In this document: positions 4,689-57,284 of the stretch, piece after piece
Layout: the number at the start of each line of letters is the position of its first letter
Numbering within the stretch: the stretch's first letter is position 1
NCBI RefSeq assembly: GCF_003602005.1
Contig: NZ_QZWD01000001.1
Span: 62,001-126,000 of the forward strand
From: Salinisphaera sp. Q1T1-3
GTDB lineage: Bacteria; Pseudomonadota; Gammaproteobacteria; Nevskiales; Salinisphaeraceae
Direction: 5' to 3'
DNA length: 64,000 nucleotides
Made by a program: the position numbers and the translations under genes
The notes under the pieces: model-generated
The model's database searches: none
The model's input: the letters and a program-made list of their open reading frames with translations, nothing else
Told to the model about the DNA's origin: nothing

Positions 4689-5605
4689 ATGACGTGATGA
4701 AAAAACGCCTGATCGGCGTGGTGGTACTGGTTGCCATCGGTGTGCTCGTGCCGGTACTGCTGGCGCGCTGCATGGGCGACTCGGGCCAGAAGGGCGATCG
4801 TGGCCAGATGCGTGTCTATAACGTGCAACCCGACGGTCAGGCCGCCCCGGCTGATAATCAGGCGCAGTCCGGCGACCAGGGTGAGAATGACAACGACGGT
4901 CAGTCGACCCCCCGTCCGGACGCCGTCTCCCCGCAGCGTGACGACTCGGCGTCGTCGGACAGTGGCAGTCAGGGCTTCAGCACGCCGCCGGTCCACGGCA
5001 GCGGCGACGACGATGCTGATTCCCCGCGTGCCGGTGGTAACCAGGGCGCGTCCCGTAGCGAAACATCGCAGCGCGCATCGACCAGTCAGCGCGGCGATTC
5101 GACGTCGCAGTCGTCTTCGGCCGGACGTTCGTCGTCCCGCGAGAGCCAGTCCTCGACAGGTCGCAGCAGCAGCGCGTCGAACGACACGGCGTCGTCGCGT
5201 AATCGGTCGAGCGATAACACATCGACGCGCCGCAACGACGGCGGTCACGACTACGGCGCGTCCACGCAGGGTTCGAGCGCGCAGCAGGCTGACCGCGGCA
5301 ACGCCTCGTCGTCGACATCGAACAATGCGTCGAGCCAGGGTGCGAGCGGCAGCAATGGTCTCGAGCGGGCCCGGATCAGTGGCTGGGTGGTCCAGGTGGC
5401 GAGCTTTTCGGAGCGCAGCAATGCCGAGCGCATGGCAAAGAGCCTGTCCGGCAACTACACGGCCTCGTATACGCCGGGCGATGTCAACGGCAAGACGCTG
5501 TATCGGGTCAACGTGGGGCCGTTCGACAACGAATCGGCAGCCCGATCGGCGGAATCGCGGCTCAAGCAGCAGGGTCACAACGGGCTTGTCCGCAACCTGC
5601 CGTAG
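4685..5605 (+). CDS. dedD: SPOR-domain inner-membrane protein (DedD-like)
   Basis: 306 aa. One N-terminal transmembrane anchor (about residues 8-27), a roughly 190-residue linker rich in Ser, Asp, Asn, Gln and Arg with no predicted fold, then a C-terminal SPOR domain (about 230-306, starting WVVQVASFSERSNAERM and containing YRVNVGPFDNESAA). SPOR domains bind denuded septal peptidoglycan, and DedD in E. coli supports cell constriction. The name rests on the SPOR domain plus position between folC and cvpA. The E. coli linker is shorter. The stop codon TAG (5603-5605) coincides with the left boundary of a dispersed repeat. Confidence 0.85.
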   Translation: MNDVMKKRLIGVVVLVAIGVLVPVLLARCMGDSGQKGDRGQMRVYNVQPDGQAAPADNQAQSGDQGENDNDGQSTPRPDAVSPQRDDSASSDSGSQGFSTPPVHGSGDDDADSPRAGGNQGASRSETSQRASTSQRGDSTSQSSSAGRSSSRESQSSTGRSSSASNDTASSRNRSSDNTSTRRNDGGHDYGASTQGSSAQQADRGNASSSTSNNASSQGASGSNGLERARISGWVVQVASFSERSNAERMAKSLSGNYTASYTPGDVNGKTLYRVNVGPFDNESAARSAESRLKQQGHNGLVRNLP

Positions 5606-5768
5606 GGCGTGTTGATGTTTCGTTCGAGGGCCGCGTTGGAGACCGCAAATCGCGCCCTGCGGCGTTGCCAGTCTGGATCGTGGCACGCCACGATCGGCGA
5701 CTCGCGCCTTGCAGGACACACTGCGGTCTCTCGACGAAAAGGCGCTCGAATGAAAGCTCAAAAGGCCC
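5605..5768. repeat. dispersed TIR element, copy 1 (short derivative)
   Basis: Begins at the G of the dedD TAG stop with the family terminus GGGCGTGTTGATGTTTCG and ends CTCAAAAGGCCC. The right two thirds (from about 5655) are the reverse complement of the left part of the full-length copy at 40390-40699, including CTCTCGACGAAAAGGCGCTCG. At 164 bp it looks like an internally deleted derivative of the roughly 310-bp form. It separates dedD from cvpA, which are usually adjacent. Confidence 0.8.
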
Positions 5769-5778
5769 TGGGTCCGAT

Positions 5779-5809
5779 CCCGCGCGGCGTCTGTCTCGCG
5801 CCGCGCGGG
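5779..5809 (+). terminator. strong hairpin between dedD and cvpA
   Basis: A perfect 11-bp GC stem: CCCGCGCGGCG (5779-5789), a 9-nt loop, then CGCCGCGCGGG (5799-5809). GATTTGTTATCC follows, a short interrupted T-rich run. It may act as a partial terminator or mRNA-processing barrier downstream of the repeat. The T-tract is poor, so full termination is uncertain. Confidence 0.45.
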
Positions 5810-5855
5810 GATTTGTTATCCTAAGCCGGTCCTTGCCTCGGCGGTCGTCTCTGAC

Positions 5856-6398
5856 ATGATGTGGATCGACGTCATCATCGCCGTGGTTGTCGTGCTGTCG
5901 GCAATCATCGGCTTCTTCCGCGGATTTCTGCGAGAAGCCTTCGGTCTGGCAACCTGGATTGCTGCATTCTTTCTCGCGTTTCGTTATGCGCCGACGGTGG
6001 GGCCCTGGCTGGCCCAATGGATCGATGTCGACTCCGCTCGCATCGTCGTGGCCTTTGCCTGTGTTTTCGTCGCGGTGCTCATCGCGGGGGCGATTCTCAA
6101 CTATCTCCTCGGGCGCCTGATCAGCGAGACCGGCTTCGCCGGTACGGATCGGGCGCTTGGTATCGTCTTTGGTGTCGTACGCGGCGTTGCAGTGCTCATC
6201 CTGCTGGTGTTGCTGGCGGGGGTGACCTCGGTGCCGCGGGACGACTGGTGGCAGCAATCGATGTTCGTCGGTCAGCTCGAATCCGGTGCGGTCTGGGTAC
6301 GCGGTTATCTGCCGGCCAATATCGCCGGTGCCATAACCTATCCGGACGCGCCCGATACACCGGCCGCGGCACCGGCGGCAACCGTCGGTACGTCTTGA
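5856..6398 (+). CDS. cvpA: CvpA family inner-membrane protein
   Basis: 180 aa. Four hydrophobic segments (about residues 4-22, 28-48, 62-84 and 102-124) and the family motif GFFRGFLREAFGLATW near residue 22. CvpA was named for colicin V production in E. coli; its biochemical role is not settled and is linked to envelope stress. It keeps its usual place just upstream of purF. Two adjacent ATG codons (5856 and 5859) are both possible starts. The C-terminus is Ala/Pro-rich and short. Confidence 0.92.
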   Translation: MMWIDVIIAVVVVLSAIIGFFRGFLREAFGLATWIAAFFLAFRYAPTVGPWLAQWIDVDSARIVVAFACVFVAVLIAGAILNYLLGRLISETGFAGTDRALGIVFGVVRGVAVLILLVLLAGVTSVPRDDWWQQSMFVGQLESGAVWVRGYLPANIAGAITYPDAPDTPAAAPAATVGTS

Positions 6399-6456
6399 TG
6401 AGCCCGTGCCGATGACGGCTCTTCACGTTTTTCCTCTCTAACCGAGTCACTCGCTT

Positions 6457-7968
6457 ATGTGCGGCATAGTTGGGATGGTCTCGACCACCCCGGTCAATCA
6501 GGACATCTACGATGCGCTCACCGTGCTCCAGCACCGCGGACAGGATGCGGCCGGCATCGTCACCACACAGGAAGGCCGGCTGTATCTGCGCAAGGAAAAC
6601 GGGCTGGTTCGTGACGTCTTCCGTACCGATCACATGCTGCGCCTGGTCGGCAATGCGGGCGTCGGGCATGTGCGGTATCCGACGGCAGGCGTGGACTCGT
6701 CGGCCGAGGCCCAGCCGTTCTATGTCAATACGCCGTACGGCATCTGTCTTTCGCACAACGGCAATCTGACGAATGCCGAGACGCTGGCGCGCGAGCTGTA
6801 TCGGGCCGACCGGCGTCACCTGAACACGGATTCGGATACCGAGATCCTGCTCAATGTGTTTGCCCATGAGCTCATGCTCAGCGAACGCCTGGAGCTGTCG
6901 CCCGACGATATCTTCGAGGCTGTCTCGGCCGTGCACCGGCGTTGTCGCGGCGGCTACGCCGCCACGGCTCTGATCACCGGTTACGGTCTGGTCGGGTTTC
7001 GTGATCCCAACGGTATCCGGCCGGTGGTCTACGGCAAGCGCGAGACCGAGGCCGGCACCGATTACATGATTGCCTCCGAATCGGTCGCCCTCGATGCATT
7101 GGGCTTCGAGCGCATCGGGGACATCAAGCCCGGTGAGGCCGTCGTGATTACCCTGGACGGCCAGCTCCACGTGCGCCAGTGCGCGGAGGCCCCGCACTAT
7201 GCGCCCTGTATCTTCGAATACGTCTATCTCTCGCGGCCCGATTCCGTGATCGACGACGTCTACGTCTACAAGTCCCGGCTTCGCATGGGCACCTATCTCG
7301 CGGACAAGATTCAGCGCGATTGGCCCGATCACGATATCGATGTGGTCATCCCGATTCCCTCGACCAGCCGGACCGCGGCCGTCGAACTGGCCAATCAGCT
7401 GGACGTGAAGTACCGCGAAGGCTTCATCAAGAATCGCTACATCGGGCGCACGTTCATCATGCCCGGCCAGCAGCAGCGCGTGAAATCGGTACGCAAGAAA
7501 CTCAACCCGATCGATCTCGAGTTCGCCGGCAAGAATGTGTTGCTCGTCGATGACTCGATCGTACGCGGCACGACCTCGCGCCAGATCATCGAGATGGCCC
7601 GTGAGGCCGGCGCGAACAAGGTCTATTTCGCGTCCGCGGCGCCGCCGGTGCGCTATCCCAATGTCTATGGCATCGACATGCCGAGCGCCACCGAGCTGGT
7701 CGCGCACGGGCATACCGATGATGAAGTCTGCCAGATCATCGGCGCCGACAAACTCATCTATCAGGATATGGAAGACCTCAAGCGTGCGGTCTCGCTCGGC
7801 AACGAACAGATCGTCGAGTTCGAGGATTCGGTCTTCACGGGGCGCTATGTCACGCCGGAAGTGTCGGCGGAATATCTCGAACATCTCGAAACCAATCGCT
7901 CCGATGCGATGAAAGAAGGGCGGCGACGCAAGGACAACGCCGTGCTCGAGATTCACAACGACGCTTGA
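6457..7968 (+). CDS. purF: amidophosphoribosyltransferase
   Basis: 503 aa, normal length. It catalyses the first committed step of purine synthesis: PRPP plus glutamine to phosphoribosylamine. Processing would expose Cys2 (MCGIVGMV) as the Ntn-type glutaminase nucleophile. Ntn-domain motifs include [11 protein letters not shown] and GHVRYPTAG. The C-terminal phosphoribosyltransferase domain carries the PRPP loop [13 protein letters not shown] near residues 361-373. It is 58 bp after cvpA and is followed by metZ after about 200 bp. Confidence 0.97.
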
Positions 7969-7975
7969 TCCGGTC

Positions 7976-8009
7976 GCGGCACGCGCGACCGTTTGCCGGC
8001 GCGTGCCGC
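7976..8009. other. perfect 11-bp inverted repeat downstream of purF
   Basis: GCGGCACGCGC (7976-7986) and GCGCGTGCCGC (7999-8009) form a perfect stem with a 12-nt loop, just after the purF stop. No T-tract follows. The right arm lies in the spacer of the predicted metZ promoter and the loop contains its -35, so it may be a weak purF terminator, an operator, or both. Confidence 0.5.
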
Positions 8010-8021
8010 GGTCGGCATAAT
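7993..8021 (+). promoter_or_regulatory. predicted sigma-70 promoter of metZ
   Basis: -35 TTGCCG (7993-7998), a 17-bp spacer, and -10 CATAAT (8016-8021). The expected start is near 8028, which is exactly where the riboswitch P1 helix begins. This would give metZ its own transcript independent of purF read-through. It is prediction from sequence only. Confidence 0.6.
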
Positions 8022-8027
8022 CGCCCG

Positions 8028-8094: not shown

Positions 8095-8110
8095 TCGTTG
8101 AACGATCTTG

Positions 8111-20315: not shown

Positions 20316-21011
20316 ATGCAACACAAGCACGTCTTGATCGTCGAGGACGAGGCCCCCATCCGTGACATGATCCGGTTTGCGCTCGAGCGGGCGGATTTCA
20401 CGGTTTCCGAGGCCGAGGACGCACAGTCGGCGCGCATGGCGATCGCCGATCACCACCCGGATATGGTTCTCCTGGACTGGATGCTACCCGGCATCTCGGG
20501 CAGCGAACTGGCCCGGGAATGGCGACGCGACGAGCTGACTGCCGCAATGCCCATCATCATGGTCACCGCGCGCGTCGACGAGGATGATCGCGTACGCGGG
20601 CTTAATCTGGGGGCCGATGACTATGTCACCAAGCCCTTCTCGTCATCGGAACTCGTTGCAAGAGTTCGGGCGGTGCTGCGGCGTAGCCTGCCGGGCGGCG
20701 AGGACGAGCGTCTCGAGCTCGACGGGCTGTCGATCGATGCCGCCAGCCAACGCGTGACGGCCGGAGAACAGGCCGTGAAACTCGGGCCCACGGAATATCG
20801 GCTGCTGCGTTTCTTCATGAGCAACCCCGAACGGGTCTACACGCGCGAGCAGATGCTCGATCGCGTCTGGGGCCAGAACGTCTACGTGGAGGAACGAACC
20901 GTGGACGTCCATATTCGTCGCCTGCGCAAGGCGCTCGCGCCCTTCGGCTACGACGGTTTCGTACAGACGGTGCGGGGCAGCGGTTATCGTTTCTCAAGCA
21001 AATCGCTCTAG
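20316..21011 (+). CDS. phoB: phosphate regulon response regulator PhoB
   Basis: 231 aa. OmpR/PhoB class regulator: receiver domain with acidic pocket (VEDEAP) and phospho-acceptor D54 (VLLDWMLPG), the T (VTAR) and K (TKPFSS) switch residues, and a C-terminal winged helix ending VHIRRLRKAL...TVRGSGYRF. Activates phosphate-starvation genes when phosphorylated by PhoR. The stop TAG (21009-21011) is the left boundary of a dispersed repeat, which parts it from phoR. Confidence 0.95.
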   Translation: MQHKHVLIVEDEAPIRDMIRFALERADFTVSEAEDAQSARMAIADHHPDMVLLDWMLPGISGSELAREWRRDELTAAMPIIMVTARVDEDDRVRGLNLGADDYVTKPFSSSELVARVRAVLRRSLPGGEDERLELDGLSIDAASQRVTAGEQAVKLGPTEYRLLRFFMSNPERVYTREQMLDRVWGQNVYVEERTVDVHIRRLRKALAPFGYDGFVQTVRGSGYRFSSKSL

Positions 21012-21319
21012 GGCCTGTTGATGTGTCGTTCGAGGGCCTTTTCGTCGAGAGACCGCCGTGTGTCGGGCAAGGCGCGAGTCGCCGATCGTGGCGTGCCACG
21101 ATCCAGACTCGTAACGCCGCAGGGCGCCCATCGTCGATTTTTCGTGGGCGGCCCAACCCCAAGGGTCAAGTGCTCCAAAATCAAAAACACGACGGCAATC
21201 CAGCGTTCTAACAGGCTGGCGCAGAAATGACACGCTATGCCTGCGACGCCTCGTCTTGCCGCCCATCGTCAATTTCAGGGCGCGTCTGGCGCGGACTCGC
21301 ACGACACATCAACAGACCC
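21011..21319. repeat. dispersed TIR element, copy 2 (full length)
   Basis: 309 bp. Starts GGGCCTGTTGATGTGTCG at the phoB stop TAG and ends CGACACATCAACAGACCC. It is nearly identical over its length to the copy at 40390-40699, including CTTTTCGTCGAGAGACCGCC, CAAAAACACGACGGCAATCC and CCCATCGTCAATTTCAGGGC. Short open frames inside are frame artefacts shared between copies. The right flank is TC, so one TA is not preserved. Confidence 0.88.
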
Positions 21320-21666
21320 TCGGGCGTGTCGTCACGAGATCGACAGAGGCAACCCGCAGGGCCAGCGGCCAGGCGACGACAATCCGACGTTATCGCGTGC
21401 GCAGGTGGCGGGGGCCACGCCATGCGCAGGATGCCTTGTTCTGTTGCCGCTTGGCCGCTGATGCGACGGTCTATTTCGTGACGACACGCCCTGGAACGCC
21501 CGCGCGCGCCATGTGCGTCTGCCGATTTCATTCGGGCGCTCGCCGACGTGATACCGGCGGCGTCGGTCGTTTCGGAACAGGCAACGGTTCGGTCCGGCGC
21601 GCGTTCGATGGACAAACCGTCAAGGCTTTCGGTCCCAACGCGCGCCGCGCTGCGAGAATGGGTTGA
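21320..21666. other. non-coding stretch upstream of phoR
   Basis: 347 bp between the repeat and phoR. A GC-rich stretch with overlapping open frames on the + strand but no recognisable domain, good ribosome site or repeat match. No clear promoter or Pho box was seen. It may be ancestral spacer or remnant sequence brought next to the repeat. Confidence 0.4.
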
Positions 21667-23019
21667 ATGATGAATGCACCGGCCGGGGAAATACGCCGCA
21701 TCTGGGCGCGCGCCATGTTTCGGCTGCTGGTCTGGCTCGGGCTCTGGGCGCTCGCGGGTCTGCTGATATCGGGTCTCGGTATCACGCTGGCGCTGCTCAT
21801 CGGCCTGTCGCTGTACACTGCCGGACATCTGGTGTTTGCCTATCAGCTGCACCGCTGGCTGGCCAAGCCGCGGATCGAACCACGCGAAGGGTTCGGTGTC
21901 TGGCAGGAAATCTATACCGAGCTCTATCGGCTCAAGCAGCGCAATCGTCGGCGCAAGCGGCGGCTCAAGGATATCGTCTCGGAATTTCAGGCTTCCACGG
22001 CGGCATTGCCCGACGGCGCGGTGGTCATCGATGCGCGCGGACGGATCGTATGGTTCAACGAGGCGGCCGCGGCTCTGCTCAAGCTGCGGGCGGGTCAGGA
22101 TAACGGTCAGCGGATCGCGAATCTGATCCGGCATCCGAGGTTCGCCAACTTCATGGCCGCGGCCGCCATAGACGGCGACACCGCCGAACTCGAGATCCCG
22201 TCGCCGGCCAACGAAACCGACACGGTGCTGTTGCGTATCGTGCCCTATGGCGACCGACAACGCCTGCTCATCGCGCGCGATATCAGCGAGCAGAAACGAC
22301 TTGAGTTCACTCGCCGGGATTTCGTGGCCAATGCCTCGCACGAACTGCGAACACCGCTGACCGTGCTGCGTGGCTATCTGGAGATGATGAGTGAAGAGGC
22401 CGGGGCCGACGCCGCGCTCGCGGACTGGCAACGGCCGATCCGGGAGATGGAGAACCAGTCTGCGCGTATGGGCCATCTCATCGATAGCCTGTTGCGGCTG
22501 GCACGGCTCGAAGGCGAGGGGTTGCAGCAGCGACAGGAAAACATCGATGTCTCGGCTCTCGTCACGCGGCTCGTCGAGGAGACGCAGCGCTCTGCCGCCG
22601 GCGCGGCCCATCGTTTCGAGGTCGTCGCGGACGAAGGGCTTGCCCTGTTCGGTCGACCGGGCGAGATTGAAAGCGTGATCACCAATCTGCTCGGCAATGC
22701 CGTGCGCTACTCGGCGTCGGATACCGTTGTCCGAATCACCTGGGCGTCGAGCGAGCAGGGCGCGACATTGGCGGTCAGCGACGAGGGGCCGGGCATCGCG
22801 GCCGAACATATTCCACGTCTGACCGAGCGTTTCTATCGTGTGGATGCGGGTCGACGCGCAACAGACGGCGGCACCGGCCTGGGCCTGGCAATTGTCAAGC
22901 ACGGGGTCGAGCATCACGAGTCCGAGCTCGTCATCGACAGCACGCCGGGCCAGGGCACGACGTTCCGCGTGGTCTTCCCACAGCAGCGTGTCGTGGTCGC
23001 AAGCGAGGCCGCGACCTAG
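21667..23019 (+). CDS. phoR: phosphate regulon sensor histidine kinase PhoR
   Basis: 450 aa. Two N-terminal transmembrane helices (about 14-34 and 36-56), a charged linker, a PAS domain (about 100-200), HisKA with phospho-acceptor H225 (NASHELRTPLT), and HATPase_c with the N box (TNLLGNAVRYS), DEGPGI and GGTGLGLAI. Works with PhoB and, through PhoU/Pst, senses phosphate. The start could be the first or second of two adjacent ATGs. The stop TAG coincides with a second repeat. Confidence 0.93.
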   Translation: MMNAPAGEIRRIWARAMFRLLVWLGLWALAGLLISGLGITLALLIGLSLYTAGHLVFAYQLHRWLAKPRIEPREGFGVWQEIYTELYRLKQRNRRRKRRLKDIVSEFQASTAALPDGAVVIDARGRIVWFNEAAAALLKLRAGQDNGQRIANLIRHPRFANFMAAAAIDGDTAELEIPSPANETDTVLLRIVPYGDRQRLLIARDISEQKRLEFTRRDFVANASHELRTPLTVLRGYLEMMSEEAGADAALADWQRPIREMENQSARMGHLIDSLLRLARLEGEGLQQRQENIDVSALVTRLVEETQRSAAGAAHRFEVVADEGLALFGRPGEIESVITNLLGNAVRYSASDTVVRITWASSEQGATLAVSDEGPGIAAEHIPRLTERFYRVDAGRRATDGGTGLGLAIVKHGVEHHESELVIDSTPGQGTTFRVVFPQQRVVVASEAAT

Positions 23020-23414
23020 GGTCTGTTGATGTGTCCTGCAAGGCGCGAGTCGCCGATTGTGGCGTGCCGAAATCCAGACTGGCAACGCCGCAGGGCAGCC
23101 ATTGTCGATTGTTCATGGGGGGCAACCCTTCGGGACAAATGCCCCCCAAATCAAAAACACGACGGCAATCCAGCGTTCTAGAGCCTGTTGACACGCCCCC
23201 CTTGCGCCGCGTCGGCGCTCATCTTTAGCAACACAAGGCATCGGGCGCGTACGGCCGTCATTCTGGCGTAGCGAACGACAACACCGGATTGCCGCAAAAC
23301 AGCGCTTGTTCCTTCGGGTTGGGCCGCAAATCACGCCCGGCGGCGTTGCGAGCCTTGCCGGACACACTGTGGTCTCTCGACGAGAAGGCGCTCGAACGAA
23401 ACCTCAACAGGCGC
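23019..23414. repeat. dispersed TIR element, copy 3 (composite)
   Basis: The left part (23019-23178) is the left half of the 310-bp type, starting in the phoR stop TAG with GGTCTGTTGATGTG but lacking its first inner block. At CTA (23178-23180) a new family terminus begins, GAGCCTGTTGACACG. It leads into the second core type (CAAGGCATCGGGCGCGTACG) and ends CTCAACAGGCGC near 23414. The break falls at the CTAG found inside the full-length copy at 40390-40699, suggesting nested insertion or recombination. Confidence 0.75.
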
Positions 23415-23515
23415 TGGCGTCACACGTTGCACGACGGCAGTGAAAGCGCGCGACTGCCCGGCGGCCAGTCGTGGAACCGACACCGGGTGCACGCCCTCCG
23501 CCCGGCGTGACGCCT

Positions 23516-23548
23516 GTGTCATGCAAACGTCATATATCCGTCATCGAA
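23516..23548 (+). promoter_or_regulatory. three-unit Pho box upstream of the porin
   Basis: GTCAT occurs at 23518, 23529 and 23540, exactly 11 bp apart, each followed by a short AT-leaning spacer. That is the tandem half-site arrangement bound by PhoB. A -10-like TAATTT sits at 23566-23571. It indicates PhoB-driven expression of the porin. Confidence 0.82.
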
Positions 23549-23572
23549 CTGACGCATCCCGCGGCTAATTTG

Positions 23573-23598
23573 CCCCCTGAGCCAAGGCTCAAGGGGGG
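23573..23598 (+). other. hairpin in the porin 5' untranslated region
   Basis: CCCCCTGAGCC (23573-23583) and GGCTCAAGGGGG (23586-23597) pair with an AA loop and one bulged A. It lies between the predicted -10 and the start codon, so it could stabilise the mRNA 5' end or affect translation. No further evidence. Confidence 0.4.
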
Positions 23599-23642
23599 AC
23601 AGCTCGGCTGTGCCCGAATCTACTGCCATCAGGGAGTTCACC

Positions 23643-25043
23643 ATGAAGAATCTGCTCGCCGGCGACGGAGCCGCGCCGGGACATCGTGCGTCGGTCGGCA
23701 AATTCGGGGTCGTCATGGCCAGTGCGGTCATCGGTGCCACATCGCTCGTGGCCGCGCCGGCCTTTGCACAGGGCGGCAGCACGACCATGCAACTGATCCG
23801 GATGATGCACGACAACGGCAGCATCACGGACACCCAGTATCAACAGCTCATGAACGCGGCCCAGAACGAGTCGGCCGCTGCCGCGCAGAGCGGATCCGGT
23901 ACGTTGGCGAATACCAACGGCGGTTCTTCGGACACGGTAACCACGGGCGCAGGTACGGGCTTCAGCGATAATCTGAAACAGCAGTTCGACAGCATGGCCT
24001 GGGCACAGAAGATCAAGCTCACCGGCGATGTGCGGCTGCGTTACGAATACAACAGCAATAACGACGCGTTGGGCACCGCGCTCGGCAATCCGGCGGCGGA
24101 CACCGACAACCGCTCACGCGGGCGCGTGCGTTATCGGCTGGGCATGATCGCCAATCCGGTCGACAACCTGGAATTGGGCGCCGGGCTGGCCAGCGGCGGT
24201 GACGATCCGCGTTCGACGAACCAGACCTTTGGCGACAACTTCAGCAGCAAGGGCATCCAGCTCGATTACGCCTACGGTCAGTACGATTTCACGCCGTATC
24301 TGGCCAACGGCTTTCAGCTCAAGGCCATCGGCGGCAAGTTCAAGTTCGGCGATTACCTGTGGCACCCGACCGATGCGATGTGGGACGGCGACATCAACCC
24401 GGAGGGTGGGTCGGTCCATCTCGCGAAGAAGTCCTCGATTGGCGAGACCTTCCTGAACAGCGGCGTCTGGGTCATCCAGGAGAACAGTGGCTCCAACCAG
24501 GATCCCTATCTCTGGTATGTCCAGGGCGGCCAGCATTTCTCGGTCAACAACTTCATCGCCTCGATCGGCGGGACCTACTACGGCTTCGAGGAAACCTATA
24601 CGGGCGACAACGCGCCGGATACCGTCTTCGAGTACGGTTCAGGCACCAATACCACGTCGCAGTTCTCGGTCGTCGACGTGGACGGCACGATCGGGACCAA
24701 GTTCGACGGTGGCAAGGCCGAGCTGATCGGCCAGTACCTGAAGAACACGCATGAAGGGGTCGGCAAGGACGCCGGCTGGGCCGTCGGCGGCAAGGCCAGC
24801 TTGAACAAGTGGGGCATGAAGTATCTCTACGTCGATCTCGACCGCAACGTGGTGCCCGATTCCTATCCGGATTCGGACCGCTTCAGCGGCGCAACCGGGA
24901 TGAAGGGGCACGAAGTGGCCGTTTCCTACGCGCTCAACGACGCGATCGAGTTCGGTGTGGACTACTACAACACCGAGTCCAAGTTCGGCCCGTCCGACGA
25001 TCGCCAGAACCTGGTGCAGACGGACGTCGAATTCAGTTTCTGA
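23643..25043 (+). CDS. outer-membrane porin, putative phosphate-starvation porin (Porin_5-like)
   Basis: 466 aa from the ATG after GGGAGTTCACC. A long signal peptide (hydrophobic VVMASAVIGATSLVAAPAFA, cleavage after AFA-Q about residue 42) is followed by a periplasmic helix region (IRMMHDNGSITDTQYQQLM) that resembles the N-terminus of the Porin_5 family. A beta-rich barrel with many aromatic strands follows, ending VDYYNTESKFG...VQTDVEFSF with C-terminal Phe, the usual outer-membrane signature. Position between phoR and pstS and the triple Pho box suggest phosphate or polyphosphate uptake, analogous to OprP/OprO but not obviously homologous. Confidence 0.78.
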   Translation: MKNLLAGDGAAPGHRASVGKFGVVMASAVIGATSLVAAPAFAQGGSTTMQLIRMMHDNGSITDTQYQQLMNAAQNESAAAAQSGSGTLANTNGGSSDTVTTGAGTGFSDNLKQQFDSMAWAQKIKLTGDVRLRYEYNSNNDALGTALGNPAADTDNRSRGRVRYRLGMIANPVDNLELGAGLASGGDDPRSTNQTFGDNFSSKGIQLDYAYGQYDFTPYLANGFQLKAIGGKFKFGDYLWHPTDAMWDGDINPEGGSVHLAKKSSIGETFLNSGVWVIQENSGSNQDPYLWYVQGGQHFSVNNFIASIGGTYYGFEETYTGDNAPDTVFEYGSGTNTTSQFSVVDVDGTIGTKFDGGKAELIGQYLKNTHEGVGKDAGWAVGGKASLNKWGMKYLYVDLDRNVVPDSYPDSDRFSGATGMKGHEVAVSYALNDAIEFGVDYYNTESKFGPSDDRQNLVQTDVEFSF

Positions 25044-30181: not shown

Positions 30182-32620
30182 TTGGCCCGTCGAACATCAT
30201 CGAACAAGCGATCCGCGAAGCGCGGTCGGCCGCGCCGCGGTTTCTTCCGGCGTCTGTTGCCTTATGTCCTGTTGCTGATCTGCGCGGGCGCGGCCGCGCT
30301 GGCGCTCTACATGATGCATCTCGACGGCGAGGTGCGAACCAAGTTCGAGGGCACACGCTGGAAGTTGCCGGCCAAGGTTTATGCCAGTCCGCTCGAACTC
30401 TATGCCGGGCTCGACATGTCCAAGGACGCGCTGGAGAAGCGACTGCAGCGCCAGGGCTATCGGGAGGCGAACTCGATCGACGGCCAGGGCACGTACGACG
30501 ATGCCGGATCGAGCCTGTCGATCCATACGCGCGCCTTCCAGTTCTGGGATGGTAAACAGCCTGATCGCGAAATCCGGCTCGGCTTCGATCGCAACGGCGT
30601 CGCGTCGCTGAAATCCGTCGACGACAAGGGCGATCTGGCCCTGATCCGCCTCGATCCCATGCTGATCGGGAGTATCTATCCGGCCAAGGGCTCGGACCGG
30701 ATCCTGGTCAAGCTCGGCGAAGTCCCGCCCATGTTGCCGGCCGGTCTGATCACGGTCGAGGACAGGCACTTCATGACCAACTGGGGCGTGTCGCCGCGCG
30801 GCATTCTGCGAGCCGCGATCGCCGATATCCGTGCCGGCGCGATCGTGCAGGGCGGCTCGACGCTGACCCAGCAGTTGGTCAAGAACTTCTATCTGAGCAA
30901 TCAGCAGACCATCACGCGCAAGGCCAAGGAAGCGTTGATGGCCATTCTGCTGGATGCGCATTATTCCAAGGACGAAATCCTCGAGGCCTACCTCAACGAG
31001 GTCTATCTGGGCCAGGACGGCTCGCGCGCGATCCACGGTTTCGGTCTGGCCAGTTACTTCTATTTCCAGAAACCGGTCCAGGAGTTGCAGCCCAACGAAA
31101 TCGCGCTTCTCGTGGCGATGGTCAAGGGGCCGAGCTATTACGATCCGCGCCGATACCCGAAGCGGGCGCTTGCCCGACGGAACCTGGTGCTGGATATGTT
31201 CCACAATGCCGGATTTCTCGACGACAGCGCCTGGCAGAAGGCCAAGAACACGGATCTCGGCGTGACATCGAACGCCGCGCACGGCAACACGCAATATCCG
31301 GCGTTCATCGATCTCGTGCGCAAGCAGCTCCAAGGGCAGTACAAGAATTCGGATCTCACCGAGGAGGGTCTGCGCGTCTTCACGACACTCGACCCGGGCG
31401 TCCAGTCTGCGGCCGAGAAGGAGGTCGACGACGGGCTGGCACGCGTCGAGAAACAGCGCGGCATGAAATCCGGGACACTGGAATCGGCCGCAATCGTGAC
31501 CAGCGTGGAAGGCGGCAACGTACTGGCGCTCGTCGGCGGCCGGGATCGCGGGTTCGCCGGCTTCAACCGGGCGCTCGACGCGCAGCGTCAGATTGGCTCG
31601 CTCATGAAGCCGGTCGATTATCTGACGGCCATGAAGAGCCCGGACAAGTACAACCCGATCACGCCGCTCGACGACACGCCGCTGTCGGTCAAGCTGGCCA
31701 ACGGCCAGACCTGGTCGCCGCAGAATTACTCCCGCCAGAATCACGGCCCGGCCGTGCCGACCTATTACGCGCTCGAGCACAGCCTGAACGTGGCGAGTTC
31801 GCGTCTGGCATTGTCGGTTGGCATCCCCAACATCATCGATACGCTGCACGATCTCGGATACGAGGGCGATGCGCCGGCGGTGCCGTCGCTCGCACTGGGC
31901 TCGGTGTCGATGTCGCCGCTGGATGTCGCCCAGATGTACAACACGATCGCCACCGGCGGTTACTACACGCCGCTGCGCGCGATCAAGGACGTGACCACGC
32001 GCGACGGCAAGCCGTTGAATCGGTACCCGCTGAAAATTCATCAGGTGGTCGATCCCGGGCCGGCCTATATCACGCAGTGGCTCATGGAGCGCGTGGCCCG
32101 TCACGGCACCGGTGCCGGCATGTACCGCGTGATCGATCGGGACAAGCAGATGGCCGGCAAGACCGGCACGACCAACGATCTTCGCGATGCCTGGTTCGCC
32201 GGCTTTGGCGGCAACCGGGTCGGTGTGGTCTGGGTGGGTCGTGACGACAACCAGTCCGCCAAGCTCACCGGGGCGACGGGGGCACTACCGATCTGGTCGC
32301 GCATCATGGCCGATATCGATGCGCGCGGAATCATGAACACGCCACCGGATAGTGTTGCCGAAGTGCCGCTCCAGCTCGTGTTCAATCCGAGCGAGCCGAA
32401 CGACGGCGCCGGCCCCAATCCGCAGGCGCTGTTCAATCACGGCCAGAACTGTCCGGATGCCACGCCCGTGCCGTTCATCAAGGGCTTCGTTCCCCAGGGG
32501 CTTCTGTCCTGCGATACCGACCTGATGCGGCTCAACGCTCAGCAGGGCCAGCAGTCGAACCCGCGTAACCGGGAGAACGGGGACGAGGATCGCGGCAACT
32601 GGTTCCAGCGGATTTTTTAG
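30182..32620 (+). CDS. mrcB: penicillin-binding protein 1B
   Basis: 812 aa from a TTG start with weak SD. Bifunctional glycosyltransferase/transpeptidase for peptidoglycan. A basic N-terminus and one transmembrane helix (about 24-46) precede a UB2H-like region (about 65-150), the GT51 domain (TVEDRHFMTNWGVSPRGILRA, GGSTLTQQLVKN), and the transpeptidase with S473 (GSLMKP), HSLN and K660 (GKTGTTND). The TAG stop (32618-32620) coincides with a dispersed repeat. Confidence 0.93.
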   Translation: MARRTSSNKRSAKRGRPRRGFFRRLLPYVLLLICAGAAALALYMMHLDGEVRTKFEGTRWKLPAKVYASPLELYAGLDMSKDALEKRLQRQGYREANSIDGQGTYDDAGSSLSIHTRAFQFWDGKQPDREIRLGFDRNGVASLKSVDDKGDLALIRLDPMLIGSIYPAKGSDRILVKLGEVPPMLPAGLITVEDRHFMTNWGVSPRGILRAAIADIRAGAIVQGGSTLTQQLVKNFYLSNQQTITRKAKEALMAILLDAHYSKDEILEAYLNEVYLGQDGSRAIHGFGLASYFYFQKPVQELQPNEIALLVAMVKGPSYYDPRRYPKRALARRNLVLDMFHNAGFLDDSAWQKAKNTDLGVTSNAAHGNTQYPAFIDLVRKQLQGQYKNSDLTEEGLRVFTTLDPGVQSAAEKEVDDGLARVEKQRGMKSGTLESAAIVTSVEGGNVLALVGGRDRGFAGFNRALDAQRQIGSLMKPVDYLTAMKSPDKYNPITPLDDTPLSVKLANGQTWSPQNYSRQNHGPAVPTYYALEHSLNVASSRLALSVGIPNIIDTLHDLGYEGDAPAVPSLALGSVSMSPLDVAQMYNTIATGGYYTPLRAIKDVTTRDGKPLNRYPLKIHQVVDPGPAYITQWLMERVARHGTGAGMYRVIDRDKQMAGKTGTTNDLRDAWFAGFGGNRVGVVWVGRDDNQSAKLTGATGALPIWSRIMADIDARGIMNTPPDSVAEVPLQLVFNPSEPNDGAGPNPQALFNHGQNCPDATPVPFIKGFVPQGLLSCDTDLMRLNAQQGQQSNPRNRENGDEDRGNWFQRIF

Positions 32621-32744
32621 GGCCTGTTAACATTCGTTGGCGTTGTCGTGCGCTACGGCAGAATGATGGCCGTACGCGCCCGATGCCTTGTCTTGCAAGA
32701 AAATGAGCGCCGGCACGGCGCACTTGGGACATGTCAACAGGCCC
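32620..32744. repeat. dispersed TIR element, copy 4 (125-bp core-B form)
   Basis: Starts GGGCCTGTTAACATTCG in the mrcB stop TAG and ends CATGTCAACAGGCCC, so the terminal inverted repeats are almost perfect. The inner sequence, read on the minus strand, contains AAGTGCGCC, CAAGACAAGGCATCGGGCGC and GTACGGCC, the second core type shared with copies 3 and 8. It is the smallest intact copy. Confidence 0.85.
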
Positions 32745-37812: not shown

Positions 37813-37998
37813 GGGCCTGTTGATGTTTCGTGCGAGTCCGCGCCAAGTGCGCCTTGAAATTGACGATGGGCGGCAAGACGAGCCGTAGCACGCATAGCGT
37901 GTCATGCTGCGCCAGCGTGCTGGAACGCTGGATTGCCGTCGTGTTTTCGATTTTGGGGCACTTGTCCCTTCGGGTTGGACCACAAATCCCGCCCGGCG
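37813..37998. repeat. dispersed TIR element, copy 5 (3'-truncated)
   Basis: Begins after CTA with GGGCCTGTTGATGTTTCGTG and continues in the opposite orientation to copies 2 and 6 (GCCGTCGTGTTTTCGATTTTG, GGGGCACTTGTCCCTTCGGG). It stops near ATCCCGCCCGGCG, without the right terminus. It lies between rsmJ and the SCP2 gene. Confidence 0.75.
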
Positions 37999-40389: not shown

Positions 40390-40699
40390 GGGCCTGTTGA
40401 TGTGTCGTTCGAGCGCCTTTTCGTCGAGAGACCGCCGTGTGTCCTGCAAGGCGCGAGTCGCCGATCGTGGCGTGCCACGATCCAGACTCGTAACGCCGCA
40501 GGGCGCCCATCGTCGATTTTTCATGGGTGGCCCAACCCGAAGGGACAAGTGCCCCGAAATCAAAAACACGACGGCAATCCAGCGTTCTAGCACGCCGGCG
40601 CAGAATGGCTGCACGGCGCCGGGCTATGTCTCGTCTTGCCGCCCATCGTCAATTTCAGGGCGCGCTTGGCGCGGACTCGCGCGAAACATCAATCGGCCC
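40390..40699. repeat. dispersed TIR element, copy 6 (full length, reference copy)
   Basis: 310 bp. Left end GGGCCTGTTGATGTGTCG (40390 on), right end CGAAACATCAATCGGCCC followed by TAG. It shares almost every block with copy 2 at 21011. An internal CTAG lies at about 40588. It sits between two convergent genes and its right terminus supplies the end of the slipin reading frame. Confidence 0.88.
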
Positions 40700-51186: not shown

Positions 51187-51193
51187 GGCCCGC

Positions 51194-53636: not shown

Positions 53637-54689
53637 TCAGTCGTGCAGGCACCGTCTGAGATGCTGCGCGCCATGCCGCAAGGCGGCATCGGCCCGGTCG
53701 ATGCCGCCGGCCATGTTCAGATAGCCGTGATATAGACCGGATTCCCGAACCAGCGTCGTCGGCACGCCAGCGGCCTGGAGTAACGCGGCGTAGGCTTCGC
53801 CCTCGTCCCGGAGCGGGTCGAATCCGGCGGTCTGGACATAGGCCGGGGCGACGCCGTTCATCGCGCCGTAAATCGGCGAGATCAGCGGATCACGCTTGTC
53901 CTGTTCGGCATTCAGATAATGTGCCTCGAACCAGTCCATCGACTTTTTTTCGAGCACGAATCCGGCATCGAAGGGTGACTTGGATGGATGGTCGATCGCG
54001 AAATCGACGACCGGATAGAACAGAGCCTGGATGCGCGGTGTACAGGCATCGTCGCGCGTCTGCTGAGCAACGATCGCGGCCAGATTGCCGCCGGCACTGT
54101 CGCCGGCCACGGCCAGACGGTTGCTGTCGATGCCGAGCATCGCACTGCGGGTGGCGATATCGCGAAAAGCGGCGATGGCATCGTGGGCAGCCGCCGGTGC
54201 CGGTGCTTCGGGGGCCAGCCGATAGTCGACCGCGATGACCGTACAGCCGGCATGATGGGCCAGGGCGCGACATACAGCGTCGTGGGTGTCGAGATCGCCG
54301 ACGACGAAGCCGCCGCCGTGAAAGAACACGATCGCCGGCTGTGCCGTCTCTTCTTCCGATCCCGCGATGCGATAGCGACGTGCGGCCAGCGCGCCGGCGG
54401 GACCGGCCAGTGACAGCTCGTCGACGTGAAACGAGGCCGTCGTTCGCGGCCCGAGGGTGCCCGATTGCGCCTTCATCAGACGGCGCTCGGTGGCCACATC
54501 GCGGCCGCCGAGCGAGGCACCGCGCCAGGCGAGCAGACGCAGCACCATCTGCGCCTGCGGGTCGAGCTTTTGCCCGTCGCGTTCGATGGGTCGGCCGGCG
54601 ACCAGGCGCAGGGCGGCTGTCGGCAGGCCAAGAAGCAAGCGGGCGCCGGTGGCTTCGAGGCGTTGTCGTGTCGTACTCATCGTGGACAC
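53637..54689 (-). CDS. alpha/beta-hydrolase (HSL-family esterase)
   Basis: 350 aa from 54689 (the second Met at 54680 is also plausible). Hormone-sensitive-lipase family: HGGGFVVGD oxyanion motif, GDSAGGN nucleophile elbow (Ser in GDSAG), an Asp in AGFDPLRDEG, and His in GLYHGYLN. Hydrolyses short-acyl esters in related proteins. Substrate here unknown. Confidence 0.87.
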   Translation of the reverse strand: MSTMSTTRQRLEATGARLLLGLPTAALRLVAGRPIERDGQKLDPQAQMVLRLLAWRGASLGGRDVATERRLMKAQSGTLGPRTTASFHVDELSLAGPAGALAARRYRIAGSEEETAQPAIVFFHGGGFVVGDLDTHDAVCRALAHHAGCTVIAVDYRLAPEAPAPAAAHDAIAAFRDIATRSAMLGIDSNRLAVAGDSAGGNLAAIVAQQTRDDACTPRIQALFYPVVDFAIDHPSKSPFDAGFVLEKKSMDWFEAHYLNAEQDKRDPLISPIYGAMNGVAPAYVQTAGFDPLRDEGEAYAALLQAAGVPTTLVRESGLYHGYLNMAGGIDRADAALRHGAQHLRRCLHD

Positions 54690-54705
54690 TCAGACGCCCA
54701 CGGCC

Positions 54706-55071
54706 TCAAGGCCGGAAACCGGCTTCGAGCGTGTACCAGGTGATATCGAGTTCGGCCAGCGGTTCACGCAACTTGGCGAGCTCGGCTGCCGGGCCGTGCA
54801 TTTCCATTCGTGACACGGTTGCGATCTCCTGAGCCTCGGCAAAGAGGGCGCCGACGTTGTCCAGATGCACGAGGAAGGCATCGCCGTCGACATAGCCTTC
54901 GCGACAGATGGCCTGTGATCCGTTGAAGCAAAAACCATAGTACAGACAGCCGGACTCGGTCCGGGTGGCTTCAATGAACCGATCGACCAGCGCCATGAAC
55001 GCATCCATGCGTGCCGCCGGAATATCGAAGTAGGGGGTGAACGAAACACCGGTATCAGTCAGTTCGGCCAT
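54706..55071 (-). CDS. antibiotic biosynthesis monooxygenase-like (ABM) domain protein
   Basis: 121 aa. Ferredoxin-like alpha+beta ABM fold: FDIPAARMDAFMALVDRFIEATRTESGCLYYGF and YVDGDAFLVHLDNVGALFAEA. Members can be heme-degrading or quinol monooxygenases; this one lacks clear diagnostic residues that I can name. It ends 17 bp before the esterase on the same strand. The following gap (55072-55218) shows nothing. Confidence 0.72.
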   Translation of the reverse strand: MAELTDTGVSFTPYFDIPAARMDAFMALVDRFIEATRTESGCLYYGFCFNGSQAICREGYVDGDAFLVHLDNVGALFAEAQEIATVSRMEMHGPAAELAKLREPLAELDITWYTLEAGFRP

Positions 55072-55218
55072 GCGGCTGCTCGTCTGAGAAAAGAGATCTT
55101 GTCAGCCTACCGTTTGCCGATGACTCGTGTCATGCCGACGAACGAGCGCATCAGGCGTATCGCGGCAGTGCCGTCTTCGGCGAATACGGACGCGAGGGCA
55201 ACGCGCTGGCCCGGACGC

Positions 55219-55539
55219 TCAGTCGAGTGCCGGATCCCAGCGATGACGTGCCAGATCCAGTTGACCACCGACGAACACGATGCCTTCGTCACCGAGCCGG
55301 CGTCGCTGGGCGATACCGGATGTACTGTCGACCGGTAACGAGATCCGCCCCCTGGCATTGACGACGCGATGCCAGGGCAGCGATTGCGGGCAACGATGCA
55401 TGGCATAACCGACCTGGCGTGCTGCCCGCGGCTGGCCGATCTCGGCGGCCACGTCTCCGTAGGTCGCGACACAGCCACGCGGGATGCGCGCCACGACGGC
55501 ATAGACACGTTCGGAAAAACGTCGTTCGGTTGAAGTCAT
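55219..55539 (-). CDS. alkyltransferase-like protein (ATL)
   Basis: 106 aa from the ATG at 55539. Homologous to the DNA-binding domain of O6-alkylguanine-DNA alkyltransferase (VYAVVARIPRGCVATYGDVA, RQVGYAMHRCP). The active-site PCHRV is LPWHRV, with W56 in place of Cys. ATLs bind O6-alkylguanine and hand it to nucleotide excision repair instead of repairing it. Confidence 0.9.
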   Translation of the reverse strand: MTSTERRFSERVYAVVARIPRGCVATYGDVAAEIGQPRAARQVGYAMHRCPQSLPWHRVVNARGRISLPVDSTSGIAQRRRLGDEGIVFVGGQLDLARHRWDPALD

Positions 55540-55574
55540 GCCTTGGCCGGAACGAAACACGCAAGACGCATGCT

Positions 55575-55723
55575 AGGGCGTGTTGAGGTTTCGTGCGAGT
55601 CCGCGCCAAGCGCTGTTGTGCGGCAAGACGAGGCGTAGCAGGCGCCGCGCAGTCGTTCTGCGCATCCTGCTAGAACGCTGTATTGCCGTCGGATTTCTGA
55701 TCTGGCGCGCTTGCCCGACCGGT
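55575..55723. repeat. dispersed TIR element, copy 7 (3'-truncated)
   Basis: After CTA (55572-55574) begins GGGCGTGTTGAGGTTTCGTG, and then the same layout as copy 5: GCAAGACGAGGCGTAGCA and GAACGCTGTATTGCCGTCGG. It is more divergent and fades near 55720 without a recognisable right terminus. It lies 35 bp before the start of the ATL gene on the opposite strand. Confidence 0.7.
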
Positions 55724-55861
55724 TCCGCCGCCGAGAATCATTCGATGAGGGGGCGCTGACAGGCCCTGGGCTGCTACGACGCTCATCGGCGGGCTCGCGT
55801 CTTGTGATGACGGCCGGCAGGCGCCAGACTCGGGGCACACAACCCGAAGCGTTTGATTTTC

Positions 55862-56692
55862 ATGAAGACCATCCGTATGCCGGGCGGCGACGAAGTCGCG
55901 GCCCTGGGCCAGGGCACTTGGTATCTCGGCGATGATCCGGCCACGCACGATCGCGAGATCGCGGCTCTGCGCGAAGGTCTGGATCAGGGCATGACTTTGA
56001 TCGATACGGCCGAAATGTATGGCAACGGACGCGCTGAATCGCTGGTCGGCGAAGCGATCGCTGGCCGGCGCGACGAGGCCTATCTGGTCAGCAAGGTATT
56101 GCCGAGCAACGCCGGTTTCGAGGCCACCATCCGTGCCTGCGAGGCCAGCCTCTCGCGCCTGGGCACGGATTGTCTCGATCTGTATCTGTTGCACTGGCAG
56201 GGTCGCGAGCCCTTCGGCGAAACGGTCGCGGCCTTCGAGCGCCTGCAGGTCGACGGCAAGATCCGCCACTACGGTGTCAGCAACCTCGACCTGGCCGCCA
56301 GCCAGGCCTTCCTTGATGCCGGCGGCCGTGCCATGCAGGCCAATCAGCTGCTCTATAACTTGGATCAGCGGGGCATCGAATGGGACCTGCTGCCGTGGCT
56401 CGATGAACGTGGCATCGTGACGATGGCCTACTCGCCGTTCGATGGCGGTGCACTGCTGCGCCATCGGGAGCTGGTCGATTTTGCGACGGCGCGCGATATG
56501 ACGCCGGCCCAGGTCTGTCTGGCATGGCTGGCGTCCCACAAACGCGTACTGCCGATCCCGAAATCCGCCGACCCGGCGCGTGTCGCCGAAAACGCCGAGG
56601 CAATGCACTGGACGCTCGACGCGGCGGATCTGGCCACGCTCGATTCGCTTTTTGACCCGCCGACCGGGCCGAGTGCGCTGAGTATTTACTAG
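55862..56692 (+). CDS. aldo-keto reductase
   Basis: 276 aa. NADPH-dependent (beta/alpha)8 oxidoreductase. Catalytic tetrad D48, Y53, K78 and H111 (LIDTAEMYGNG, VSKVLP, LLHWQG). Late motif LPIPKSADPARVAEN binds the cofactor phosphate. Substrate unknown. An upstream TTG at 55853 is possible; ATG 55862 is preferred. The TAG stop (56690-56692) is the left boundary of repeat copy 8. Confidence 0.9.
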   Translation: MKTIRMPGGDEVAALGQGTWYLGDDPATHDREIAALREGLDQGMTLIDTAEMYGNGRAESLVGEAIAGRRDEAYLVSKVLPSNAGFEATIRACEASLSRLGTDCLDLYLLHWQGREPFGETVAAFERLQVDGKIRHYGVSNLDLAASQAFLDAGGRAMQANQLLYNLDQRGIEWDLLPWLDERGIVTMAYSPFDGGALLRHRELVDFATARDMTPAQVCLAWLASHKRVLPIPKSADPARVAENAEAMHWTLDAADLATLDSLFDPPTGPSALSIY

Positions 56693-57135
56693 GGCCTGTT
56701 ATTAACCCGGCATAAAAATAGATGATTTCTCGGGTTGATAACGCGCGTGTGCGAAAGCACGCGCGCCACGGCCAACGGCCGTGAAGCCATTGAAAATGAA
56801 AAGACGGACAAGTGCCGGCGTTTCTTTCGATGGCGTTGAAAACAGCTGACGTCGTCAGCTGTTCTGGTGCCGGATTAATAACACGTCTCGCGTGCGCCGC
56901 GCCGGCGCTCATTTTTTTGCAAGACAAGGCATCGGGCGCGTACGTAAGTCATTCTACCGTCGCGAACGACAACGCCGGATTGCGGAAAATGACCGCCGTC
57001 CCGTCGGATTGTGCCCAGAAACCGGCCATGCGGCGTTGCACGGTTTGACCCTGGAATGACCAAGGCTGAGGCCATGCGCCTTGCCTGGCCGGTTTTGCGC
57101 GGCAACGCGGTCACGTGCGAAACATTAACCGGCCC
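56692..57135. repeat. dispersed TIR element, copy 8 (large composite with a hairpin cluster)
   Basis: Starts GGGCCTGTTATTAACCCGG in the stop TAG and ends CGAAACATTAACCGGCCC. 56692-about 56886 is flanked by inverted GTTATTAACCCGG/CCGGATTAATAAC and holds four hairpins. From about 56880 the core-B type follows (CAAGACAAGGCATCGGGCGC, GTACGTAAGTCATTC). 443-444 bp, the longest copy. A further degenerate copy appears to follow immediately. Confidence 0.75.
56699..56863. other. cluster of four strong hairpins inside repeat copy 8
   Basis: HP1 TTATTAACCCG/CGGGTTGATAA (56699-56709 and 56731-56741, one G-U). HP2 10 bp with a GAAA tetraloop (56743-56752 and 56757-56766). HP3 CACGGCC/GGCCGTG with loop AAC (56767-56783). 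HP4 AACAGCTGAC/GTCAGCTGTT with loop GTC (56841-56863). HP2 and HP3 are adjacent and could stack. The stretch is AT-richer than its surroundings. Confidence 0.65.
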
Positions 57136-57137
57136 GA

Positions 57138-57284
57138 GGGCGCGTCCGGCGTGCCGTGCGTTCGGCCAGGGGCAAGAAGACGAGGCGCAGCATGCACGGC
57201 GTGCGGTTCTGTGCCAGTTGGCCAAAACGCAGAATGACCGTCGTGTTTGGACGCTGGGACGCCTGTTTTGACGAGGTTGGAGCG
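57138..57284. repeat. dispersed TIR element, copy 9 (degenerate)
   Basis: Begins GGGCGCGTCCGG right after copy 8 and contains GCAAGAAGACGAGGCGCAGC, GCATGCACGGCGTGCGG and AATGACCGTCGTGTTTGG, recognisably the same layout as copies 5 and 7, but with many changes and no right end. It lies in the 3' flank of kup. Confidence 0.5.

What the first reader, a model, noticed from the sequence alone, without database searches (positions are those of the whole stretch)
5605..57284. Family of TIR-bearing non-coding elements that insert at CTAG and reuse TAG stop codons
At least eight copies share termini GGGCCTGTTGATG / CATCAACAGGCCC and two related cores. Five begin precisely in the TAG stop of dedD, phoB, phoR, mrcB and an aldo-keto reductase gene; others follow CTA. 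This looks like TA-target insertion (IS630/Tc1-mariner type, which can prefer CTAG). Because the element begins with G, insertion into TA restores TAG, so stop codons are neutral landing sites. No transposase is present, so these are MITE-like.
Basis: partly seen in the sequence, partly recalled or inferred. Interest (0 to 1): 0.85.

Follow-up and report, generated by a model that had tools for sequence, protein, structure and literature searches.

The report
IS5-driven miniature transposons at stop codons
A bacterium of the genus Salinisphaera carries hundreds of small, gene-less jumping elements that appear to be moved by an ordinary transposase encoded elsewhere in its genome and that often land on gene stop codons without harming the gene.

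Summary
Eight element islands lie in the window; five begin in the TAG stop of a gene (SPOR-domain/DedD-like, phoB, phoR, PBP1B/mrcB, aldo-keto reductase). CTAGGGCCTGTTGA occurs 109 times in the genome, the reversed control 0 times. The genome is a Salinisphaera. The elements are MITEs: short, inverted ends, a TA duplication, a Y-TA-R (mostly CTAG) target. Similar ISs occur in sister species, Pseudomonas and Azotobacter. MITE ends come in species 'dialects' (GAKG or GCCG); in the genome that matches S. hydrothermalis they equal the ends of its resident IS. Relatives are empty at the phoB, mrcB and reductase sites; one shows an empty CTAG site at phoB. Stop codons are not clearly targeted: against unoccupied CTAG sites between genes the excess is not significant (OR 1.5, p 0.18), while in-gene insertions are depleted. 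CTAG is about tenfold rare, so about two in five CTAG stops are occupied. Unexpected: cores are more alike between species than synonymous sites.

The parts
5605..5768 (+). MITE core A, 164 bp (internally deleted); TA target 5603-5604 is the TA of the TAG stop of the SPOR-domain gene 4685-5605; right duplication reads TG
21011..21319 (+). MITE core A, full length 309 bp, at the phoB stop (gene 20316-21011); left TA 21009-21010, right duplication reads TC 21320-21321; empty site in G010
23019..23414 (+). mosaic/nested island of core A and core B at the phoR stop (gene 21667-23019)
32620..32744 (+). MITE core B, 125 bp, at the stop of mrcB/PBP1B (gene 30257-32620)
   Evidence: element absent at this stop in 5 of 5 relatives examined
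37813..37988 (+). MITE core A, left end intact (CTAG), right end missing; not at a called stop
40390..40699 (+). MITE core A, full length 310 bp; left flank CCAG, right flank CTAG
55576..55751 (+). MITE core A fragment, left end CTAG, right part diverged
56692..57311 (+). island of core C, core B and a core A remnant at the stop of the aldo-keto reductase gene (55862-56692)

Best explanation
These are miniature inverted-repeat transposable elements (core A about 310 bp, cores B and C about 125-375 bp), mobilised in trans by an IS5-family (IS427-like) insertion sequence of about 860 bp with the same terminal 17 bp. The transposase acts at a TA within Y-TA-R (best CTAG), inserts the element and duplicates the TA. 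The element begins with G, so insertion into the TA of a TAG or TAA stop leaves a TAG at the same place and the gene stays intact. CTAG is scarce and in-gene insertions are removed by selection, so surviving copies sit between genes and on stop codons. Shown: ends, target, duplication (with the caveat on mutation below), one empty site, an IS with matching ends, species-specific positions. Inferred: transposition in trans by this IS, current activity, and selection as the cause of the depletion inside genes.
For: Genome-wide termini 109 against 0 in the control. An intact single-ORF IS5 transposase at G000:C58, flanked CTAG|GCCCTGTTGAGGTTTCG and CTAG|GGCCTGTTGATGTTTC; core A matches its right end exactly over 20 bases including CTA, and its left end over 21 bases at 90%, with no significant interior match. 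A second copy, cut by a contig end, has its outer end in the TAG stop of a UvrD-like gene (named by eye). Similar ends and CTAG or TTAG flanks surround the IS in the 3 S. hydrothermalis copies, 3 other Salinisphaera genomes (one cut, one end seen), and Pseudomonas, Stutzerimonas, Ventosimonas and Azotobacter (ends examined in 11 of the 28 loci, one of them with one end only). TIR dialects, YTAG+GAKG / YTAG+GCCG: own 163/0, G005 75/16, G009 75/7, G013 6/93, G007 2/45, G001 0/62; reversed controls at most 1. In G005, 68 of its 75 GAKG ends read GGGCGTGTTGAGG (4 of them IS ends), as do both ends of 2 of its 3 IS copies. End pairs in G005+G013: 33 CTAG/CTAG, 15 CTAG/TTAG, 3 TTAG/TTAG of 51; own sample TTAG 10 against CTAA 1, p 0.012. 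phoB empty site: joined flanks align without a gap across the junction to G010. mrcB and reductase sites empty in 5 of 5 relatives examined; phoB stop without element in 12 of 12 readable relatives. In-gene insertions depleted, OR 0.29, p 0.0002.
Against: The IS shares only its ends with core A, so the MITE is not a simple deletion of it; cores B and C share only 11-12 terminal bases including CTA and could use another transposase. G013 and G007, rich in the GCCG dialect, and G009, rich in GAKG ends, hold no match to this transposase, and G001 holds only weak or partial ones; their mobiliser is unidentified. In G002 and G006 the two GCCG ends counted are those of the IS itself, so a MITE/IS match of dialect is shown only for the own genome and G005. 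CTAG/TTAG pairs could also come from mutation of CTAG/CTAG, and one own pair, TTGG/CTAA, would fit a 4-bp duplication. Conserved cores are unusual for purely selfish MITEs (my judgement). The collection holds one genome per species, so no same-species comparison was made, and no transposition was observed.
Confidence: 0.9

Rival explanations
1. IS630/Tc1-mariner MITEs: a different TA-duplicating transposase moves them.
For: A TA duplication is classic for IS630 (recalled). Cores B and C and the MITE-rich genomes G013, G007 and G009 lack an identified partner.
Against: The ISs found with these ends carry IS5-family transposases. IS427-group members are listed at 832-865 bp, mostly with 2-bp duplications (PMC3281130, passages). 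The genome was not searched with an IS630 model.
Confidence: 0.05
2. A non-mobile functional RNA or regulatory element placed at 3' ends (terminator, RNase site).
For: Strong folding, z -6.1 and -5.5. 15 pairs with changes on both sides against 10.1 in shuffles, 10 of the 15 outside the TIR, 4 of them in one core hairpin. Core consensus 81-88% identical to six species with 6-10 copies sampled, where phoR synonymous sites are 46-52% identical.
Against: Species-specific positions and an empty site; no Rfam match in the window; 1 terminator-like site in 20900-23700, inside the phoR island, against 2.5 expected. With stems taken from the own consensus, departures in other species give G-U and A-C about equally (26 against 25 distinct, 87 against 67 cells), so no RNA strand is clearly favoured; own copies lean to G-U by cells (43/17) but not by distinct changes (18/14). 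The structure was derived from the same alignment.
Confidence: 0.05
3. Stop codons are actively preferred by the transposase rather than tolerated.
For: 34 of 93 strict events touch a called gene stop; stop against intergenic for all YTAR sites OR 3.4, p 6e-6.
Against: Against CTAG sites, the main target, OR 1.54, p 0.18. Stop ends are by definition intact, and the genes come from my own caller.
Confidence: 0.1

Closest known systems
IS427 group of the IS5 family (Paracoccus ISs, PMC3281130, passages incl. part of Table 2)
   Same: About 850 bp, IR 13-21 bp, mostly 2-bp duplication, IS5 transposase
   Different: There described as autonomous ISs; here similar ends are carried by hundreds of short elements. 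Group assignment not checked in ISfinder.
Bacterial MITEs such as Correia (Neisseria), ERIC, Chunjie (review PMC10969869, passages read)
   Same: Short, TIR, stable fold, high copy number (Correia over 120, ERIC up to 711), mostly intergenic, size variation and truncation
   Different: Other termini and hosts; here an IS with matching ends is present, CTAG is the target, and many copies sit exactly on stops. The review's main text holds no 'stop codon'.
QMITE2 of Coxiella (PMC5896051, passages read) and enterobacterial RU elements (PMC2759123, passages read)
   Same: MITEs meeting gene 3' ends; RU elements with TA duplications
   Different: In the passages read, insertion extends the C-terminus or removes the normal stop; here the stop is kept by TA + G.

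Membership tests
MITE (bacterial) | Terminal inverted repeats | tested here: met
MITE (bacterial) | Target-site duplication | tested here: met
   TA, with the mutation caveat
MITE (bacterial) | Short (100-400 bp) and many copies | tested here: met
MITE (bacterial) | Encodes no transposase | tested here: inconclusive
   full copies of 125-375 bp are too short for one; none of the 8 DDE_Tnp_1 matches lies on the window's contig; other transposase families and element ORFs were not searched
MITE (bacterial) | Autonomous partner with the same ends | tested here: met
   for core A; not shown for cores B and C
MITE (bacterial) | Demonstrated transposition | not testable with these tools
   only species-specific sites and one empty site
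IS5 family, IS427 group (the partner) | IS5-family DDE transposase | tested here: met
   NF033580 249 bits (cut-off 110), PF13340, PF01609
IS5 family, IS427 group (the partner) | About 830-870 bp, IR 13-21 bp, 2-bp duplication | tested here: met
   860 bp, ends imperfect, 16 of the first 22 bases equal; comparison values from PMC3281130; for the IS copies themselves CTAG/CTAG flanks do not tell 2 from 4 bp, one copy (G006) is CTAG/TTAG
IS5 family, IS427 group (the partner) | Placement in the ISfinder IS427 group | not tested
   no ISfinder access
IS630/Tc1-mariner | IS630-type transposase with these ends | tested here: inconclusive
   the partners found are IS5; no IS630 model was run on the genome
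IS630/Tc1-mariner | TA duplication | tested here: met
   not specific to this family
Known structured RNA | Match to an Rfam family | tested here: not met
   0 matches at gathering score in the window

The most novel reading that the evidence does not exclude
A genus-wide MITE/IS5 system in which the CTAG target, a terminal G and a CTAG-poor host combine into stop-safe insertion, so that roughly two in five genes ending in CTAG now have a transposon-made 3' end. Its cores are kept far more alike between species than neutral DNA, meaning they either circulate between species or do something for transposition or for the host mRNA.
Probability: 0.3. Interest if true: 0.6.

Novelty: new member of a known kind. 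Interest (0 to 1): 0.42.

Why it matters
It gives a clear, testable account of how a TA-inserting element with a leading G can use stop codons as neutral sites, links hundreds of MITEs to an identified IS by shared ends, and offers a natural test of MITE/transposase co-evolution in one genus. It also warns against reading such 3'-end repeats as regulatory RNAs.

Tried and rejected
IS630/Tc1 as the mover: set aside because the partner found is IS5. A 4-bp CTAG (IS5-type YTAR, recalled) duplication, my first reading: disfavoured by CTAG/TTAG and TTAG/TTAG pairs and TTAG 10 against CTAA 1. Very-short-patch repair as the cause of the skewed decay CTAG to CCAG (30 T-to-C against 8 A-to-G, p 0.0005): no Vsr match in this genome and in only 2 of 14 genus genomes, so the skew stays unexplained. 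Functional RNA: no Rfam match, no clear wobble asymmetry. Terminator role: 1 site against 2.5 expected in 20900-23700. MITE core on plasmids: no match; the IS itself has relatives there, 32 records at 60-80% identity. RNAalifold on the 40-row alignment A2 gave an uninformative structure. Literature: searches listed no paper that by its title or abstract start is about MITEs of Salinisphaera; beyond the listings I saw only passages of PMC3281130, PMC5896051, PMC2759123 and PMC10969869.
Full report
Observation. Eight islands of a repeated element lie in the window and five begin exactly in a gene's TAG stop: a SPOR-domain gene (DedD-like), phoB, phoR, PBP1B and an aldo-keto reductase. In the window the 13-base terminus with up to 3 mismatches occurs 55 times against 22.2 expected, maximum 35 in 100 shuffles. 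In the genome (3.87 Mb, 59 contigs) CTAGGGCCTGTTGA occurs 109 times and its reversed control 0 times. The 315-bp phoB copy finds 40 near full-length copies at 85-100% identity; 40 is also the number of candidates that were scored out of 291.

Organism. The genome's IS5 transposase is 92-93% identical to three copies in Salinisphaera hydrothermalis C41B8. G005, of the same genus, is taken to be that species because its IS copies lie at the same contig numbers and positions and have the same ends (inference). All 13 other genomes of the genus match the element. Of 3 genomes of the same family but other genera, 2 have matches (one with 2, best E 1.5e-4; one with 1, E 1.2e-28). 0 of 24 genomes of the same order outside the family have any.

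Anatomy. A sample of 864 kb (22% of the genome, including the window) gave 98 merged islands, 23 kb; at least 6 of them belong to another repeat. There are 142 strict ends in 93 events; 5 of the 93 are lone matches inside genes that look like chance (C11 121869, 166148, 210601, 210673, 412021). Extrapolating the other 88 gives roughly 390 copies and fragments per genome (inference). Three end types share GGGCCTGTT: core A (...GATGTTTCG), core B (...AACACTTCG or AACACGTCC) and core C (...ATTAACCCGG). Ends and cores appear recombined among copies.

Duplication. Read inward, end flanks are mostly CTAG (63 of 142), then CCAG (26) and TTAG (10), with CTAA only once. If four bases were duplicated, TTAG on one side would require CTAA on the other. 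In G005 and G013, 51 neighbouring pairs were 33 CTAG/CTAG, 15 CTAG/TTAG and 3 TTAG/TTAG (from the listings; the search pattern required YTAG at both ends, so CTAA partners could not have been listed). This fits a TA duplication, an element with G at both outer ends and a Y-TA-R target. Mutation of CTAG/CTAG could give some of the mixed pairs. At mrcB the own stop flank is TTAG, as in G009 without the element (TTTTAG), and the other end reads CTGG, one change from the CTAG expected for a TA duplication and two from the CTAA expected for a 4-bp one. In the own sample 10 of 41 pairs are CTAG/CTAG; most of the others have at least one end that is not YTAG, and one (TTGG/CTAA) would fit a decayed 4-bp duplication.

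Empty sites. Joining the flanks of the phoB element minus one TA gives ...GCAAATCGCTCTA|GGGCGTGTCGTCACGAGAT, which aligns without a gap across the junction to G010 ...GCAAGTCGCTCTAGGGCGCGTCGTCATGCGAT; in G013 the match stops at the junction and in G009 it crosses it with a gap. The phoB stop was read in 12 of 13 relatives (not G006) and none has an element there. At the phoR stop, 12 of 13 relatives have none; G009 has one with a GCCG-type end, apparently an independent insertion. At mrcB the stop is TAG in 3 of 5 relatives and TGA in 2, always without an element; at the reductase 5 of 5 lack it, the G009 frame being misread by the script but its end visible. The mrcB flanks beyond the site were too diverged for a clean junction.

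Partner. A PF01609 search of the genome found 8 matches. One (C58) is an intact frame between matching ends: CTAG|GCCCTGTTGAGGTTTCG and CTAG|GGCCTGTTGATGTTTC, 860 bp, IS5 family by NCBIfam NF033580 and Pfam. Core A matches its right end over 20 bases exactly (17 without CTA) and its left end over 21 bases at 90%; there is no significant interior match, and cores B and C share 11-12 bases including CTA. A second copy is cut by a contig end; its outer end sits in the TAG stop of a gene that looks UvrD-like by eye. Similar ISs with related ends (GGGCCTG, GGGCGTG, GGGTCTG, GGGGCTG and the like) and CTAG or TTAG flanks occur in S. hydrothermalis, three other Salinisphaera genomes (one a cut copy with a single end), Pseudomonas, Stutzerimonas, Ventosimonas and Azotobacter (11 of the 28 loci examined). 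6 of 14 genus genomes hold no match to the transposase, including the MITE-rich G013, G007 and G009.

End dialects. YTAGGGSSTGTTGAKG / YTAGGGSSTGTTGCCG per genome (forward + reverse; reversed controls at most 1 per genome): G000 163/0, G005 75/16, G009 75/7, G013 6/93, G007 2/45, G001 0/62, G004 1/11, G008 0/13, G010 1/10, G012 4/1, G011 4/1, G006 0/2, G002 1/2, G003 0/1. In G005, 68 of the 75 GAKG ends read GGGCGTGTTGAGG (4 of these are IS ends), like both ends of 2 of its 3 IS copies. IS copies in G002, G004 and G006 carry the GCCG form, but in G002 and G006 the two GCCG ends counted are those of the IS itself, and in G004 several lie at contig starts and may be IS too. So the dialects are real, the MITE/IS match is shown for the own genome and G005, and elsewhere it is a prediction.

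Stop codons. In the sample 35 ends in 34 of 93 events meet a called gene stop (32 TAG, 2 TAA, 1 TGA). Unoccupied CTAG sites: 37 at stops, 79 between genes, 59 in genes. Stop against intergenic: OR 1.54, p 0.18. Genic against non-genic: OR 0.29, p 0.0002; chance matches inflate the genic class, so the true depletion is stronger. Against all YTAR sites the stop excess is OR 3.4, p 6e-6. CTAG occurs 261 times in the sample including element ends, against 2,854 expected from base composition. 70 of 731 called genes end in CTAG, and 26 stop ends with CTAG carry an element, so about 37-41% of such stops are occupied (all). Genes were called with my own codon-usage script, not a standard annotator.

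Core conservation. phoR 4-fold sites are 46-52% identical between this genome and G005, G007, G010, G011, G012 and G013 (composition expectation 35%), whereas core A consensus sequences are 81-88% identical over shared columns, 76-87% with gaps counted (6-10 copies per species). Genomes with fewer sampled copies give 73-84% over shared columns (G001 lowest). The IS is 91-92% identical at 4-fold sites between this genome and S. hydrothermalis, against 47% for phoR, so the IS has moved horizontally (inference). The MITE cores may have done so too, or be constrained. Foreign copies were picked by similarity to an own copy, which inflates the figure. A structure test gave 15 pairs with changes on both sides against 10.1 in shuffles (1 of 500 shuffles as high), 5 of them in the TIR and 10 in the core, while further pair types did not exceed shuffles (50 against 49.1); the structure came from the same alignment. 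G-U and A-C departures were about equal by distinct changes (26/25 in stems common to both strands, 52/46 and 43/48 in the plus and minus folds), so RNA-level selection is not supported, though not excluded.

Verdict. A well-supported MITE family with an identified IS5-type candidate mover: a new member of a known kind. The stop-codon placement is real and mechanistically neat but is largely explained by where CTAG survives. Core conservation and the unidentified mobiliser of G013, G007 and G009 are the open points.

Noticed in passing
free element ends in the 864-kb sample: CTAG flanks decay asymmetrically to CCAG (T-to-C 30 against A-to-G 8); no Vsr repair match in this genome. Unexplained.
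   Followed up: partly
L215 and L258: A MITE with 15-bp flanks is identical over 343 of 343 bases in G013 and G009 although their phoR 4-fold sites are 48% identical: recent transfer or cross-binning.
   Followed up: no
L194 545-568: G009 holds CTAGGGCCTGTTAACAGGCCCTAG, a perfect palindrome equal to two element tips fused.
   Followed up: no
G000 C11 185758-185933 (sample C11 163758-163933); also sample C11 200915, 298900, C22 72566, 284226, 326278: A different repeat with CTCTGATCTATTCATCCACGG / CCGTGGATGAATAGATCAGAGG at its edges turned up in the core B search.
   Followed up: no
G009, contig ends: More than 20 of the listed G009 ends lie within about 130 bases of a contig start (examples read), suggesting very recent amplification there, with no match to this transposase.
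   Followed up: partly
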